NCBI GenBank assembly: GCA_013151915.1
Contig: JAADHJ010000024.1
Location: 1 to 46,534, forward strand
Direction of reading: 5' to 3'
Source: Deltaproteobacteria bacterium
Lineage (GTDB): Bacteria; BMS3Abin14
Length of the DNA stretch: 46,534 nt
The position numbers and the translations under genes were made by a program. Numbering within the stretch: the first letter of the stretch is position 1; every line of letters starts with the position of its first letter. Below the pieces are notes generated by a model that was given only the letters and a program-made list of their open reading frames with translations, did no database searches and was not told the DNA's origin. Shown in pieces: positions 24,845 through 37,672 of this stretch.

Positions 24845-25246
24845 GTGAGCAGCGTGGTACGGATGTTCGCTAAATTTGTCAGGAAAATTTTTTTCAGGAC
24901 CCTTGTCATCATACTCCTGTTAAGTGGTGTTTTTGTCCTGATGGGTCACAGGTCCTGGGCCAGAGGGGTTGCCCTGGGTGGGGCCGCGAGCCTGGTAAAT
25001 TTCCTGGCAATGGCCGGTCATATACCTCGGCACGCCGTGAAGGTGGGACCCGGGGGTCAGCGATCCGCTGCGGGGCGTTACGCTTTGAGGATGGTAATCG
25101 CCGGTGCGGTCCTTTTTGCAGCTGCTTCGATGGACAGGATCGCTCTTTGGGCGGCTATACCGGCGTTGTTCATCGCCCAGGCGGTCCTTATCGTCGGGGA
25201 GTTGACCGGGGGAACAGACCGGAAGAACGAAATGGAAACCAGGTGA
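24845..25246 (+). CDS. atpI: ATP synthase accessory protein AtpI-like
   Basis: The 133-residue product is very hydrophobic with four likely membrane helices (about 18-33, 43-58, 81-95 and 101-118), the architecture of the AtpI/ATP synthase I family. These proteins are thought to help assemble the c ring and may carry Mg2+. Sequence conservation is low, so the call rests on topology and its position directly before atpB. The start may be GTG at 24845 or 24854, or ATG at 24863. The stop is one base before atpB. Confidence 0.72.
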   Translation: MSSVVRMFAKFVRKIFFRTLVIILLLSGVFVLMGHRSWARGVALGGAASLVNFLAMAGHIPRHAVKVGPGGQRSAAGRYALRMVIAGAVLFAAASMDRIALWAAIPALFIAQAVLIVGELTGGTDRKNEMETR

Positions 25247-25247
25247 C

Positions 25248-25919
25248 ATGGAAGACATGACCTACATCCCCACATATTCATTTGATCTGTTCGGTCTCCA
25301 CCTGACGGTTAACACGGCCACACTGTTCAATACGTGGGTCGTCATGGCTTTTCTTATAATCGTTGCTTTTCTGGCAACAAGGAGGCTGAAACAGATCCCG
25401 GGTCCCCTCCAACGGATGATGGAGGTTTATGTTTCCAGTATGGACAAGCTTGTCAGGGACACTCTTGAGACCACCAGCCGGGGCTACCTTCCGTTGATCG
25501 CGACCATGTTTCTCTTCCTGGTTTTGTGCAACTGGCTTGGGATCATACCGGGCCTTGAAGAACCCACAAGAGACCTGAACACACCGCTGAGCCTTGGAAT
25601 CATGGGTTTTGTCCTCACCCATTTCGCGGCTGTCAGGGAAAAAGGAATAGGGACCTACCTCAAAGAGTACGCCGAGCCTTTCTTTGTAATGGCCCCGCTG
25701 AACATCATCGGAGAACTGGCCAAGGTTATATCCATCTCTTTCCGACTGTTCGGCAATATCATGGGGGGAGCGATCATTATCATCGTGGTTTCCCACATGG
25801 TTTACAACCTGGTTTTGCCGCCGTTTCTAAACGCCTTCTTCGGGCTTTTTGTCGGTACCATCCAGGCCTTCGTTTTTACCATGCTTACGATTACGTATAT
25901 AGCTGTGGCGACTAAATAG
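25248..25919 (+). CDS. atpB: F-type ATP synthase subunit a
   Basis: Subunit a is the stator channel that passes ions to and from the c ring. The 223-residue protein has five or six membrane helices. The essential arginine is R166 in ISISFRLFGNIMGG, and the last helix contains GTIQAFVFTMLTITYI. AGGTG lies just before the ATG at 25248. It is followed by a dispersed repeat and then by two c-subunit genes, one a triple hairpin, so this single a subunit must serve whatever ring they make. Confidence 0.96.
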   Translation: MEDMTYIPTYSFDLFGLHLTVNTATLFNTWVVMAFLIIVAFLATRRLKQIPGPLQRMMEVYVSSMDKLVRDTLETTSRGYLPLIATMFLFLVLCNWLGIIPGLEEPTRDLNTPLSLGIMGFVLTHFAAVREKGIGTYLKEYAEPFFVMAPLNIIGELAKVISISFRLFGNIMGGAIIIIVVSHMVYNLVLPPFLNAFFGLFVGTIQAFVFTMLTITYIAVATK

Positions 25920-25985
25920 GATGGACTCGCAAAAAATCCATCAAGCAGGATGTACGCGAAGCGAAAAGACTTCTTGCGAGTTTGT
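25919..25985. repeat. MITE-like dispersed repeat before the triple c gene
   Basis: ACTCGCAAAAAATC (25924-25937) and GACTTCTTGCGAGT (25968-25981) are imperfect inverted ends around a short core. The core includes CAGGATGTACGCGAAGCG, repeated after the triple c gene. The element lies between atpB and the triple c gene inside the operon. Confidence 0.65.
25946..25963 (+). repeat. 18-bp direct repeat, upstream copy
   Basis: CAGGATGTACGCGAAGCG matches 26764-26781 at 17 of 18 positions. The two copies bracket the triple c-subunit gene. Confidence 0.7.
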
Positions 25986-26012: not shown

Positions 26013-26756
26013 ATGGATCCAATCGCAACCGCAGCGATCGTCAAGGCCCTGGCCCTCGCAGGGGCCGGGCTGGCTATCGGTCTCGGCGCCATCGGTCCGG
26101 GAATCGGCGAGGGTCTATCGGCCGGCAGCGCCTCGTTGGGAATCGCCAGGCAGTCCGCGACATCCTTCGACCTGTTTCGCATCATGCTTGTCGGCCAGGC
26201 GGTGACGGAAACCTCGGGTATCTTCGCGTTGGTGGTGGCCATCCTGCTCCTTTTCGGAAACTATCAGGGTGTTCCCCTTATTGACGGTTTCAGCGCGCTG
26301 GGTGCCGGCCTCTCCATTGGAGCGGCATCCCTGGCCTCCGGTGTGGGAGCGGGGTTCCCCGCTGCGCGGGCCTGCGAGGCTATTGCACGGCAGCCATACC
26401 TCAGAAGCAGCTTCACCACCATGATGCTCATAGGCCAGGCAGTAAGCCAGACCCCGGTCATTTTCGCCCTGCTTATTTCGTTTCTGCTTATCTTTCTCCC
26501 GGCAAGACCCAATGCCGGCATCGTCGATTTTGTGGCCATGCTTTCAGCGGGGCTCTGTATGGGGTTCGGGGCCGTGGGACCATCCATCGGTTCCGGAATT
26601 GCGGCCGAGTCGGCCATCATCGGAGTCAGGAATCACAGGGACCCGCCCAGTTCGGTAGGCCTGCTGACCAGGGTCATGCTCCTGGGCCAGGCGGTGGCTC
26701 AGTCCACAAGCATCTACGCCATGGTTGTGGCGTTTGTACTGATAATGTTGAGGTAA
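26013..26756 (+). CDS. atpE: ATP synthase c subunit, fused triple hairpin with one intact ion site
   Basis: The ATG at 26013 (GAGG upstream) gives 247 residues made of three consecutive c-subunit hairpins, about 1-81, 90-161 and 172-246. Each has the glycine-rich first helix and a GQAV-containing second helix. Hairpin 1 keeps the ion-binding carboxylate (E66 in VTETSGIF) and a second one, E33, in helix 1. Hairpin 2 has Q146 (VSQTPVIF) and A113; hairpin 3 has Q230 (VAQSTSIY) and S194. So two of three hairpins lack the essential glutamate, as in V-type or Acetobacterium woodii c1 proteins. The hairpins differ much from one another, ruling out a recent duplication. A single-hairpin c gene follows 116 bases later. 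Confidence 0.93.
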   Translation: MDPIATAAIVKALALAGAGLAIGLGAIGPGIGEGLSAGSASLGIARQSATSFDLFRIMLVGQAVTETSGIFALVVAILLLFGNYQGVPLIDGFSALGAGLSIGAASLASGVGAGFPAARACEAIARQPYLRSSFTTMMLIGQAVSQTPVIFALLISFLLIFLPARPNAGIVDFVAMLSAGLCMGFGAVGPSIGSGIAAESAIIGVRNHRDPPSSVGLLTRVMLLGQAVAQSTSIYAMVVAFVLIMLR

Positions 26757-26763
26757 TTGCGAA

Positions 26764-26781
26764 CAGGATGTACGAGAAGCG
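26764..26781 (+). repeat. 18-bp direct repeat, downstream copy
   Basis: CAGGATGTACGAGAAGCG repeats 25946-25963 with one mismatch, eight bases after the triple c gene's stop. Confidence 0.7.
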
Positions 26782-26872
26782 CGCATCCTGGGGTGGGGGT
26801 GGAGCCATGCGGATTCACTCCGACCGACGAGACGGTCAATGTTTAAACTGAATTACTTCAGGAGGAACAAAA

Positions 26873-27130
26873 ATGGATGGAATAAGCGGAGCGGAATTGA
26901 TCAGAGCGGCAGCCTTACTCGGCGCGGGCATCTCCATGGGGTTCGGCGCCATAGGCCCGGGCGTCGGTGAGGGTTTTGCGGCCGGCAAGGCCTGCGAGGC
27001 TATCGGTAAAAACCCGGATGAGGCCGGACTCCTTACGCGAACCATGCTGGTGGGACAGGCTGTTTCCGAGTCCACCGGGATCTACGCCCTCGTGGTAGCC
27101 CTTCTCCTCATCTTCGTAGTCAAGGGATAG
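26873..27130 (+). CDS. atpE: ATP synthase c subunit, single hairpin with two-carboxylate Na+-like motif
   Basis: This 85-residue protein is a normal two-helix c subunit. Helix 1 has [18 protein letters not shown] with E33 where the Na+-type Ilyobacter c subunit has Q32. Helix 2 has [11 protein letters not shown] with E66, S67, T68 and Y71, matching the Na+-coordinating E-S-T...Y set. E33 plus E66 resembles the two-carboxylate Na+ site of Fusobacterium nucleatum. The polar loop is KNP, not RQP. AGGAGG seven bases before the ATG at 26873 is a stronger ribosome site than that of the triple gene, fitting higher copy number. Na+ coupling is inferred from residues only. Confidence 0.96.
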
Positions 27131-27246: not shown

Positions 27247-27684
27247 TTGGTTAGCATCAACTTCACCTTATTTGTCCAGCTGGCTAACTTCCTGATTCTG
27301 CTGGTTGTTCTCAACTTCCTGCTATTCAAGCCGATTCTCCGGGTGCTTGATGAACGTGAGAAGCTCGTGAAGGACGCGGCGGAGATCAAGGAACGGTTAA
27401 GCGGGCTGGCGGATGAAAACATTGCCAGATACGAATCACAACTCCTGTCCGCCAAGCAGGAATCCATGTCCATAAGGACGGCTTCCCGGAGCGAGGCGCT
27501 TGGTGAATTCCGCAAGATTCTTCAGGACACCAAGGAGGAAAATGCAAAGGAGCTTGATATCGCCCGAAAAACATTGGCTGCCCAGGCCGAGGAATCCAGA
27601 ACAGTGCTCAAGACGGAGGCAGAGAACCTGGCCGACAAGGTCGCCGCAAAGCTGTTGGGCCATAACATGGGAGGAAGGGCGTGA
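27247..27684 (+). CDS. atpF': ATP synthase subunit b' (peripheral stalk)
   Basis: The 145-residue product has one N-terminal membrane helix (about 5-28, QLANFLILLVVLNFLLFKPI) and a long charged coiled coil to the C-terminus, the form of b/b' stalk proteins. It starts with TTG at 27247 behind GGAGG (27237-27241). Having both b' and b implies a heterodimeric stalk, as in deltaproteobacteria, alphaproteobacteria and cyanobacteria. Its stop overlaps the b subunit ATG by one base. A 116-base gap separates it from the c gene. Confidence 0.9.
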   Translation: MVSINFTLFVQLANFLILLVVLNFLLFKPILRVLDEREKLVKDAAEIKERLSGLADENIARYESQLLSAKQESMSIRTASRSEALGEFRKILQDTKEENAKELDIARKTLAAQAEESRTVLKTEAENLADKVAAKLLGHNMGGRA

Positions 27685-28274
27685 TGTCAAAAAGAACAGT
27701 CCGGACCCTCCTGCTGGTAGCCTGCTGTCTTATGATCCCCGCCGTCTCCATGGCTGCGGGAGGTGAAGGTGCCGATGGGGGTGGAGGCGGGCGGGCGATT
27801 TACGATCTTGTCATGCGGTTCGTGAACTTTGCCATCCTGCTCGGGGTCCTTATATATTTTACACGTAAACCTATTGTGGAGGGCATCAAGGGGAGCATAG
27901 AATCGATCCGCAAGCTTCTCAATGAGGCCGAGGTGTCCAGAAAAGAGGCCGAGATCAAGATGAAAGAGGCCGAGGAGCGCCTGGCGCGGGTGGATCAGGA
28001 GACGGAGGCGCTTATCCAGGCCGCCAAGAAGGAAAGTGAAATCGAAAAGGAAAGGATCCTGCGCGAAGCGGAGATGGCGGTGGAAAGGCTCAAGAAAGAG
28101 GCCAAGCTGTCCATCCGGCAGGAACTGAAGAAATCGCAGGAGATTCTGAGGAAAGAGGTCGCCGACACAGCCGTGACTATCGCAGAGGAGATCATACGGA
28201 AAAAGATAACCCCGGAGGATCACCATAGGTTTGTTGACGAATATCTGAATGATCTGGAGGCAGTCAAGCAGTGA
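27684..28274 (+). CDS. atpF: ATP synthase subunit b (peripheral stalk)
   Basis: The 196-residue product has an N-terminal signal-like hydrophobic stretch ending in AVSMAAGGE, a Gly-rich spacer, then the membrane helix (about 42-59, FVNFAILLGVLIYFTRKP) and a long coiled coil. An extra N-terminal hydrophobic segment is common in deltaproteobacterial b subunits; whether it is cleaved is unknown. The ATG at 27684 (TGATG with the b' stop) follows GGAGGAAGGG; a GTG one codon earlier is possible. It overlaps atpH by four bases. Confidence 0.93.
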   Translation: MSKRTVRTLLLVACCLMIPAVSMAAGGEGADGGGGGRAIYDLVMRFVNFAILLGVLIYFTRKPIVEGIKGSIESIRKLLNEAEVSRKEAEIKMKEAEERLARVDQETEALIQAAKKESEIEKERILREAEMAVERLKKEAKLSIRQELKKSQEILRKEVADTAVTIAEEIIRKKITPEDHHRFVDEYLNDLEAVKQ

Positions 28275-28821: not shown

Positions 28822-30339
28822 ATGCGAATCAGAGCGGAAGAGATCACCGAGATAATCAAGAAGCAGATCGAAGGGTTCGAGAAATCCATCGATGTAAAGG
28901 AAACCGGAATCGTCCTGTCTACCGGCGATGGCATCGCCCGGGTGCATGGCCTTGAAAACGCCATGGCCGGAGAGCTCGTGGAGCTGCCCGGCGAAGTCTT
29001 CGGAATGATTCTGAACCTGGAGGAGGATAACGTCGGCATCGTTCTTTTTGGTGAGTACCAACTCATCAAAGAGGGCGACATCGTCAAACGTACCGGCCGG
29101 ATCGTAGAAGTGCCGGTCGGCGAGGGGCTGTTGGGCAGGGTTGTCAATCCTCTGGGGCAGCCAATAGACGGGAAGGGGCCCATCGAGACCGATGCCACCC
29201 GCCTGGTCGAGGTTATCGCGCCAGGTATTGTCAAGAGGCAGCCGGTCAAGGAACCGCTCCAGACAGGTTTGAAATCGGTTGACTCCATGATTCCCATCGG
29301 CCGCGGTCAGAGGGAGCTGATCATCGGTGACCGTCAGACGGGCAAGACCGCTATCGCCATCGATACCATTATCAACCAGAAAACCGCCGCAGACCCCGTG
29401 ATCTGTATCTATGTTGCCATCGGGCAGAAAGAATCCACAGTAGCGCGGGTTGTCGCCGACCTGGAGGAGCGCGGTGCCATGGATTACACCATCGTGGTTT
29501 CCGCCTCCGCGAGCGAGCCGGCGCCTCTTCTGTTTATCTCGCCATTTGCAGGATGCGCCATGGGAGAGTATTTCCGAGACAAAGGGGAGCACGCTCTCCT
29601 TATATATGACGATCTTTCCAAACACGCTGTTGCCTATCGGCAGATGTCCCTTCTCCTAAGACGGCCTCCGGGGCGCGAGGCATATCCCGGAGATGTTTTT
29701 TACCTGCACTCCAGGCTGCTGGAGCGAGCTGCCAAGTTAAACGATGAGATGGGTGGAGGTTCACTGACGGCGCTCCCGATAATCGAGACCCAGGCCGGAG
29801 ATGTTTCGGCATATATCCCCACAAACGTCATCTCCATTACCGATGGACAGATTTTCCTGGAGTCGGATCTGTTCTACTCAGGGGTCCGCCCCGCCATCAA
29901 TGTTGGTATTTCGGTCTCCCGGGTAGGTGGGGCGGCGCAGGTCAGAGCAATGCGGCAGGTCGCAGGTCGACTGCGCCTGGAATTGGCCCAGTACAGGGAA
30001 ATGGCGGCTTTCGCCCAGTTCGGATCCGACCTTGACAAGACGACCCAGAGGCAGCTCGCACGCGGTGAACGACTGGTGGAGGTGCTCAAACAGGACCAAT
30101 ATGTTCCCATGCCGGTGGAAAAGCAGGTTCTGACCATCTTCTCAGCGACAAACGGGTATCTTGACGACTATCCTGTGGAGGTTATCGGCAAGTATGCTGA
30201 GGAGATGGTGCGTTTTATGGAAAACCGCCACCCTCGCATTCTCAAGGATATCAAAGAAAAAGGAAAGCTCGACGATGACCTTCAGGCCACGATGAAAAAC
30301 GCCCTCGATGAGTTCAAAAACGAGTTCGTCTACGAATAG
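28822..30339 (+). CDS. atpA: ATP synthase subunit alpha
   Basis: Alpha forms the noncatalytic nucleotide sites of the F1 head. The 505-residue product has the Walker A motif GDRQTGKTA (169-177) and the family run [17 protein letters not shown] near residue 360. Length and domain order are standard. It follows atpH by five bases and precedes atpG by 15, as in classical F1 operons. Confidence 0.99.
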
Positions 30340-31253: not shown

Positions 31254-32699
<1,446 letters not shown>

Positions 32700-33274: not shown

Positions 33275-33351
33275 CGGGATGTGGCGCAGCTTGGTAGCGC
33301 GCATGGTTCGGGACCATGAGGCCGCGGGTTCAAATCCCGCCATCCCGACCA
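33275..33351 (+). tRNA. tRNA-Pro (anticodon CGG)
   Basis: The acceptor arms CGGGATG and CATCCCG pair fully over seven bases. The anticodon stem CATGG/CCATG closes the loop TTCGGGA, with CGG at 33309-33311 and the G37 expected for proline tRNAs. The T arm is GCGGG TTCAAAT CCCGC. The CCA end is encoded (33349-33351). The molecule is 77 bases long with no intron or anomaly. Confidence 0.97.
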
Positions 33352-36100: not shown

Positions 36101-36418
36101 GGCTTCCGATAGATTGTCTGTTGGGGGTTGACATCTCGTTTCCTTACAGTTAAGTTTCCTGAGTCCAATCCTGAATTCAGGAGCCTTATCCAAAAAACAA
36201 GCCTTTCATGTGTATCCCGGTGACGAAGCCCGCTGACCCCGGCATTTAAGATTGAATTTCAATTGCCCAACTGATGGGCGTTTCAAAACTGTTTACCTGA
36301 GGACTTATCGAACAACTCAATCCCACAAATACCGGCGATACCACCTGCCATATCTGAAGAGCCACCTGCCATGCCTAAAAAAGCACAAAAAAATGATGAC
36401 CCAAGGAGTAGTAAATCT
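36101..36418 (+). other. Leader region before rho, nothing identified
   Basis: About 320 bases separate the GAF/GGDEF gene from the chosen rho start. No tRNA, terminator or repeat family member was recognised. The ATG at 36371 offers an in-frame longer rho. Such a long leader could allow the autoregulation known for rho in other bacteria, but the sequence does not show it. Confidence 0.35.
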
Positions 36419-37672
36419 ATGGACTTGACGGAACTGAAGGAAAAATCCATCAGTGAGCTGACCAAGATGGCAGCTAAAGAATTCAAAATCGAAGGCGCCG
36501 GCAGTATGAGGAAACAGGACCTCATCTTTGCAATCCTGCAATCCCAGGCCCATCAGAAAAAATCCATTTACGGAAGCGGGGTGCTGGAGATACTGCCGGA
36601 TGGTTTCGGATTTCTTCGCTCACCCGACTCAAACTACCTACCCGGTCCGGACGATATATACGTTTCCCCTTCCCAGATCAGGCGTTTCAACATGAGGACC
36701 GGGGATACCGTTACCGGCGAGATCAGACCCCCAAAGGAAGGGGAGCGATATTTCGCCCTCCTGAAGGTCGAGAGCCTCAACTTTGAGCCGCCCGAGGCCT
36801 CCCGCGGGAAGATCCTCTTCGACAATCTCACGCCCCTTTACCCCGAGGAGAGGATCACGCTTGAGACCGACGATATCAAGAACTATTCCAGCAGGGTGAT
36901 GGATATTATCACCCCCATAGGCAAAGGTCAGCGGGGGCTTATTGTGGCGCCCCCCCGTACCGGTAAGACGATGCTTCTGCAGAACATCGCCAACAGCATC
37001 AGCATCAACCACCCTGAAATTTTTCTGATCGTTCTCCTCATTGATGAAAGACCCGAGGAAGTGACGGACATGCAGCGATCCGTCAAGGGAGAGGTCATCT
37101 CCTCAACTTTCGATGAGCCGCCCACCCGGCATATCCAGGTAGCCGAAATGGTCATCGAAAAAGCCAGAAGGCTGGTTGAACACCAGAAGGACGTTGTGAT
37201 TCTGTTAGACAGTATTACCCGCCTTGCCAGGGCCTACAACACGGTGTCGCCCCCAAGCGGAAAGGTGTTGTCCGGCGGTGTTGATTCCAATGCTCTGCAC
37301 CGGCCCAAAAGGTTCTTCGGTGCCGCCAGGAATATCGAGCAGGGAGGCAGCCTGACCATAATCGCCACCGCGCTTGTGGATACCGGGAGCAGAATGGACG
37401 AGGTCATTTTCGAGGAGTTCAAGGGAACCGGAAACATGGAACTTCATCTTGACAGGCGGCTTGTCGAGAAGAGGATCTTTCCGGCTATCGATGCCAGCCG
37501 ATCCGGAACCAGAAAAGAGGAACTCATCGTTGCCCCGGATATTCTCAACAGAATCTGGGTGCTGCATAAGGTTCTGGCCCCGATGAACACCATCGACAGC
37601 ATGGAATTCCTGCTGGACAAGCTTCAGGGAACGAAGGATAATCAGGAATTCTACGACATGATGGACAAATAG
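36419..37672 (+). CDS. rho: Transcription termination factor Rho
   Basis: Rho is a hexameric RNA helicase that ends transcription and enforces polarity. The chosen ATG at 36419 (AAGGAG upstream) gives 417 residues beginning [20 protein letters not shown], which aligns with the usual Rho start; an ATG at 36371 would add 16 polar residues. The primary RNA site has [20 protein letters not shown]. The Walker A is APPRTGKT (177-184), followed by [12 protein letters not shown] and [14 protein letters not shown]. The sequence looks fully functional. rpmE follows, a common pairing. Confidence 0.98.

What the first reader, a model, noticed from the sequence alone, without database searches (positions are those of the whole stretch)
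26013..26756. Triple-hairpin F-type c subunit with Glu-to-Gln in two of three ion sites
Directly seen: one 247-residue reading frame holds three c hairpins. The ion-binding position is E66 in hairpin 1 but Q146 and Q230 in hairpins 2 and 3. The helix-1 position that is E33 in hairpin 1 is A113 and S194 in the others. The remaining GQAV frameworks are well conserved, so this looks like selected loss of charge, not decay. Established: the V-type-like c1 subunit of Acetobacterium woodii also has a hairpin without the carboxylate. Inference: this protein lowers the number of ions per rotation, or acts as a gating or pumping element in the ring.
Basis: partly seen in the sequence, partly recalled or inferred. 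Interest (0 to 1): 0.88.

Follow-up and report, generated by a model that had tools for sequence, protein, structure and literature searches.

The report
Rotor subunit with mostly silenced ion sites
This bacterium's ATP synthase has an extra rotor protein made of three fused copies of the normal rotor subunit, two of them with the ion-binding acid replaced by glutamine; dozens of related bacteria carry 2- to 6-fold versions, often beside a second ordinary set of rotor genes that must share one catalytic head, which suggests a natural way to change the gear ratio of the enzyme.

Summary
Window 26013-26756 encodes three c-subunit hairpins (247 aa). The ion-site residues are E66, Q146 and Q230; the helix-1 partners are E33, A113 and S194. 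It lies between subunit a and an ordinary single-hairpin c (E...EST, the Na+ two-carboxylate type) in a complete F1Fo operon. It is under strong purifying selection. Its best match by sequence and fold is Acetobacterium woodii c1, where one of two hairpins shows the same E-to-Q change.

Relatives make it more unusual. About 90 proteins with 2-6 hairpins, from several phyla, have Gln at 94% of internal hairpins. In most of the window's own family all three hairpins lack a carboxylate. A Glu-bearing single-hairpin c is almost always adjacent.

The genome has one F1 but two a/c sets. In the complete Desulfonema magnum genome the multi-hairpin set is a free-standing a/c/c/b'/b operon without F1.

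Most likely this is a rotor-ring subunit that lowers ions per ATP, in an alternative Na+-type Fo sharing the only F1. Ring incorporation, the ion ratio and F1 sharing are inferred, not shown. It is a new variant of the known hybrid rotor.

The parts
26013..26756 (+). c3: triple-hairpin c subunit, ion-site residues E66, Q146, Q230; helix-1 partners E33, A113, S194
26873..27130 (+). c1: single-hairpin c subunit with two-carboxylate Na+-type site (E...EST); presumed ring partner
25248..25919 (+). atpB, subunit a of the same Fo; keeps the conserved Arg (SFRLFGN); of the class that goes with multi-hairpin c
24845..25246 (+). atpI-type protein (PF03899), probable ring assembly factor
27247..27684 (+). 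b' subunit (peripheral stalk)
27681..28274 (+). b subunit (peripheral stalk); only one b'/b pair in the genome
28271..28816 (+). delta subunit
28822..30339 (+). alpha subunit; the only F1 alpha in the genome
30355..31212 (+). gamma subunit
31260..32699 (+). beta subunit; the only F1 beta in the genome
32709..33125 (+). epsilon subunit

Best explanation
The protein is a rotor subunit of an Na+-type Fo. With the single-hairpin c next door it forms a mixed c ring. Each copy fills three hairpin places but brings one ion site (none in most of the family). The neutral Gln keeps helix packing and a hydrogen-bonding side chain while removing the mobile charge. The ring therefore carries fewer ions per turn: in an 11-hairpin ring one copy gives 9 ions per 3 ATP (3.0 per ATP) and two copies give 7 (2.33), against 3.67 with single-hairpin c alone. 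This favours ATP-driven pumping against a steep gradient, or synthesis when ions are few but the gradient is high. In this genome and in many Thermodesulfobacteriota the module is a second Fo beside an ordinary a/c set, and both must use the only F1. SHOWN: sequence, conservation, operon partnership, predicted fold, one F1 with two a subunits. INFERRED: assembly into the ring, changed ion/ATP ratio, Na+ as the ion, sharing of F1.
For: Closest solved relative by sequence and fold is a proven ring subunit, A. woodii c1, with the same E-to-Q change in one hairpin. Strong purifying selection, as strong as on c1 and a. Single-hairpin Glu c adjacent in almost all loci not cut by contig ends, Glu at the site in 89 of 89. 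In Cloacimonadota with one a and one F1 the multi-hairpin c lies in that sole synthase operon. Gln, not random residues, at 198 of about 340 hairpins, and joint loss of the helix-1 carboxylate. Hairpins are homologous by position across phyla. The single-hairpin partner is nearest to Na+ rings. One F1, two a subunits in G000.
Against: No biochemical evidence that the protein enters the ring; copies per ring unknown. Runs of up to five silent hairpins (L085, L089) would leave a long arc without an ion site at subunit a, which known rotors do not show. Gene neighbourhood could also fit an assembly role.
Confidence: 0.7

Rival explanations
1. Assembly template: the multi-hairpin protein seeds the c ring or sets its size, once per ring or transiently, and its ion sites are lost because they play no part.
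For: Genes lie next to AtpI, a known ring-assembly factor, and before the single-hairpin c. Hairpin number varies from 2 to 6.
Against: Loss is not random: Gln is fixed at internal sites. The first hairpin keeps Glu in 70 of 92 proteins, which a pure template would not need. A. woodii c1 is in the mature ring (4BEM).
Confidence: 0.13
2. Gate or ratchet: the silent arc lets the ring turn readily in one direction or stalls it at low ion-motive force, so it controls direction or prevents wasteful ATP hydrolysis, rather than setting the stoichiometry.
For: Silent hairpins are consecutive and grouped in one chain, which makes a single asymmetric arc. It is compatible with ring membership.
Against: No independent evidence. 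Any such ring also has fewer ion sites, so this can only come in addition.
Confidence: 0.1
3. The module is an F1-independent Na+ channel or pump part in organisms where it lacks F1, unrelated to ATP synthesis.
For: 34 of 68 sufficiently long loci have no F1 in the fetched flanks, mostly with b' and b; their neighbours are unrelated genes.
Against: Retention of b and b' points to F1 binding. In the window and in Cloacimonadota the same module is in one operon with F1.
Confidence: 0.04
4. Decaying duplicate or sequencing artefact.
For: Loss of catalytic carboxylates alone could suggest decay.
Against: dN/dS about 0.09, Q146 and Q230 invariant in 11 proteins, open frames in dozens of independent assemblies.
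Confidence: 0.01

Closest known systems
Hybrid F/V rotor of Acetobacterium woodii (c1 with c2/c3, PDB 4BEM) and Clostridium aceticum
   Same: F-type operon with a multi-hairpin c and single-hairpin c side by side; E-to-Q at the ion site of one hairpin; best sequence match (E 1.3e-24) and best fold match (rmsd 1.7 A); motifs Q..ET then Q..QT described in PMC7911925.
   Different: A. woodii c1 has two hairpins with one silent. Here three (2-6 in relatives) with two silent, or all silent in most of the family. A. woodii keeps the helix-1 Gln in the silent hairpin; here it is replaced by A/S/G/N/C. The window genome also has a second a/c set; I did not test this for A. woodii.
Na+ c rings of Ilyobacter tartaricus and Fusobacterium nucleatum (1YCE, 3ZK1)
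   Same: Single-hairpin partner has Na+-type ligands; E33/E66 recalls the two-carboxylate motif of F. nucleatum (PMC3692424).
   Different: Those rings are homomeric c11 with every site active.
V/A-type c (K) subunits: Enterococcus hirae, eukaryotic V-ATPase, methanogen triplicated proteolipids
   Same: Fused hairpins with loss of ligands in some of them; fold similarity. Triplication in Methanocaldococcus jannaschii and 13 hairpins in Methanopyrus are described in PMC2359735.
   Different: Sequence scores fall well below the NCBIfam cut-offs for V-type K; the operon is F-type, and a separate single-hairpin F-type c is present.

Membership tests
F-type c subunit family (PF00137 / TIGR01260) | Hairpin domain above curated cut-off | tested here: met
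   PF00137 131.2 bits against 24, three stretches; TIGR01260 72.1 bits against 43.95
F-type c subunit family (PF00137 / TIGR01260) | Essential carboxylate in helix 2 | tested here: inconclusive
   Present in hairpin 1 (E66), absent in hairpins 2 and 3 (Q146, Q230); absent in all three in most of the family
Hybrid rotor of the A. woodii kind | F1Fo operon holding both a multi-hairpin c with fewer sites than hairpins and a single-hairpin c | tested here: met
Hybrid rotor of the A. woodii kind | Multi-hairpin c has two hairpins (V-type-like) | tested here: not met
   Three hairpins here, 2-6 in relatives
Hybrid rotor of the A. woodii kind | Both kinds of c present in the same ring | not testable with these tools
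   Needs purified ring
Na+-coupled c ring | Q/E in helix 1 and E-S/T in helix 2 of the active sites | tested here: met
   c1 E...EST, c3 hairpin 1 E...ETS; c1 nearest to Na+ rings
Na+-coupled c ring | Na+ dependence of activity | not tested
   Experiment needed; Rnf-type gene (PF03116) present in all 12 genomes searched, which fits but does not prove an Na+ cycle
V/A-type K subunit | Score above NCBIfam cut-off for V-type subunit K | tested here: not met
   NF004913 69.9 against 211; NF011483 64.4 against 188

The most novel reading that the evidence does not exclude
These bacteria run one F1 head on two interchangeable Fo motors: an ordinary, probably H+-type motor, and an Na+-type motor whose gear ratio is lowered by multi-hairpin c subunits with most ion sites silenced. 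They could thus switch ion and gear without a second F1.
Probability: 0.42. Interest if true: 0.92.

Novelty: new variant of a known kind. Interest (0 to 1): 0.74.

Why it matters
Ions per ATP are usually thought to be set by ring size. A broad natural series with 2 to 6 fused hairpins and zero to three active sites allows a direct test of how a rotor works with long silent arcs, and of how anaerobes near the energetic limit tune the ratio. If one F1 really serves two Fo motors, energy budgets of many sulfate reducers that assume one Fo per F1 would need revision. No paper I could search describes three or more hairpins in an F-type rotor or the one-F1/two-Fo arrangement; many subscription papers, including the 2015 hybrid-rotor survey by Brandt and Müller, could not be read here.

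Tried and rejected
Decay or sequencing error: rejected. A second F1 in the genome to pair with the other a/c set: none in G000, Desulfonema magnum and others; G133 is an exception with two complete F-type sets. A conserved F1-like partner next to F1-less modules: neighbours differ (DHH protein, solute-binding protein, DNA polymerase I, ClpB-like, integrase, kinase). Known RNA elements in the operon: only a tRNA at 33275-33348. The 18-base repeat before c3 and c1 as a conserved regulatory element: absent from the sister locus L039.

Full report
OBSERVATION. The frame 26013-26756 (+) gives 247 residues with three PF00137 domains. Residue numbering agrees with the finding: E33/E66, A113/Q146, S194/Q230. 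The operon in the window is parA, parB, bactofilin, atpI, a, c3, c1, b', b, delta, alpha, gamma, beta, epsilon.

SELECTION. Between the window and its sister genome G001, c3 has dN 0.043 and dS 0.497; c1 has 0.047/0.484 and a has 0.034/0.563. Hairpin 2, which has no carboxylate, is the most constrained of the three (dN 0.018).

RELATIVES. All eleven other genomes of the family that were searched have the gene, whole or in part. G000 and G001 have E/Q/Q. Where the gene is complete, the other family members have S/Q/Q, so no carboxylate in any hairpin. G108 and G133, from other families, have E/Q/Q, so E/Q/Q looks ancestral and loss of the last Glu derived (inference). Over about 340 hairpins of some 90 proteins with 2-6 hairpins, the site residue is Q 198, E 120, S 14, G 4, D 2; internal hairpins are Q in 138 of 147; no complete triple protein keeps a carboxylate in all three hairpins. 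A few of these loci are near-copies of each other, so the counts are not independent. Among 198 Gln hairpins the helix-1 residue is S, A, G, N or C in 194 and never E or Q, while 93 of 120 Glu hairpins have E there. The two carboxylates therefore go together, which argues against simple decay. Hairpins match by position between organisms: first with first in 71 of 82, internal with internal in 134 of 137, last with last in 75 of 90.

PARTNER. A single-hairpin c with Glu at the site (89 of 89; helix-1 residue E in 85, Q in 4) lies next to the multi-hairpin gene in almost all loci not cut by a contig end. Its nearest solved structures are Na+ rings: A. woodii, I. tartaricus, F. nucleatum.

STRUCTURE. 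AlphaFold2 on 20 sequences gives pLDDT 94.1, pTM 0.88 and three helical hairpins. The best PDB match is A. woodii c1 (rmsd 1.7 A), then V-type K/c subunits. By sequence A. woodii c1 is also best, and its second hairpin reads GQAVAQTTGIY, the same E-to-Q change.

TWO Fo SETS, ONE F1. G000 has one F1 alpha and one beta (the third PF00006 match lies at the ORF 36371-37672, probably Rho) and one b'/b pair, but two a subunits. The second set, at contig C33, is AtpI-like, AtpI, a, c, with no F1 beside it. Its c has Q...ESL and is closest to chloroplast H+ rings, so it is probably H+-type; this is not proven. Among the 27 genomes compared, most genomes of the window's family and all the Thermodesulfobacteriota looked at have two a subunits and one F1 alpha/beta pair. 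In the complete Desulfonema magnum genome the three loci are: AtpI-like-AtpI-a-c; AtpI-a-multi c-c-b'-b without F1; and bactofilin-b'-b-delta-alpha-gamma-beta-epsilon, with four b-type genes in all. Of 68 loci long enough to judge, 34 have F1 downstream and 34 do not. The a subunits that go with multi-hairpin c are separated from the ordinary ones by a 100/100 branch; several long branches make the deeper order unsure. The two Cloacimonadota genomes checked have one a and one F1, with the multi-hairpin c in that sole synthase. G133 has two complete F-type alpha/beta pairs, so one F1 is not universal.

MECHANISM. With n hairpins in the ring, each window c3 removes two sites. For n = 11, the number in all Na+ F-type rings known in 2013 (PMC3692424), ions per ATP fall from 3.67 to 3.0 (one copy) or 2.33 (two copies); one six-hairpin, one-site relative gives 2.0. 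A. woodii, with one silent hairpin, has 3.3 (PMC5662883). Fewer ions per ATP let hydrolysis pump against a steeper gradient and make synthesis need a larger one. [quoted passage not shown] aceticum and A. woodii (PMC7911925). All 12 genomes searched carry an Rnf/Nqr-type gene, which fits an Na+ cycle.

KNOWN AND NEW. Hybrid rotors with one silent hairpin, and fused proteolipids of archaea, are known. New here, as far as the open literature searched shows: three to six hairpins in an F-type setting, proteins with no site at all, the spread over several phyla, and free-standing Fo modules sharing one F1.

LIMITS. Ring incorporation, the ion/ATP ratio, Na+ use and F1 sharing are inferences. The literature search covered only open-licence papers; the hybrid-rotor survey of 2015 is cited by others but could not be read.

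Noticed in passing
25946-25963 and 26764-26781: An 18-base sequence (CAGGATGTACGMGAAGCG) stands in both spacers, before c3 and before c1; a third copy with one mismatch is elsewhere in the genome (C4), none in the sister locus. Probably a short dispersed repeat.
   Followed up: partly
26740-26890: The spacer between c3 and c1 folds strongly as RNA (-48.1 kcal/mol, z -3.84, no shuffle as good), without a run of U. It could set the c3:c1 ratio by processing or partial attenuation; conservation not shown.
   Followed up: partly
L060 (Desulfonema magnum), L064, L067, L101 and others: Free-standing Fo operon AtpI-a-multi c-c-b'-b with no F1 nearby, in genomes with a single F1 elsewhere.
   Followed up: partly
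L085, L089: Six-hairpin c proteins with Glu only in the first hairpin and five consecutive Gln hairpins.
   Followed up: partly
L053 (G013): A very divergent four-hairpin protein (site residues E, Q, E, D) without an adjacent single c found, in a genome whose alpha and beta lie apart.
   Followed up: no
G002, G004, G005 (same family): Two extra PF00006 proteins side by side (frames of about 500 and 610 aa), probably V/A-type B and A subunits, absent from the window's genome.
   Followed up: no
L038:4956-8771: Multihaem cytochrome genes follow directly after the second a/c set on contig C33.
   Followed up: no
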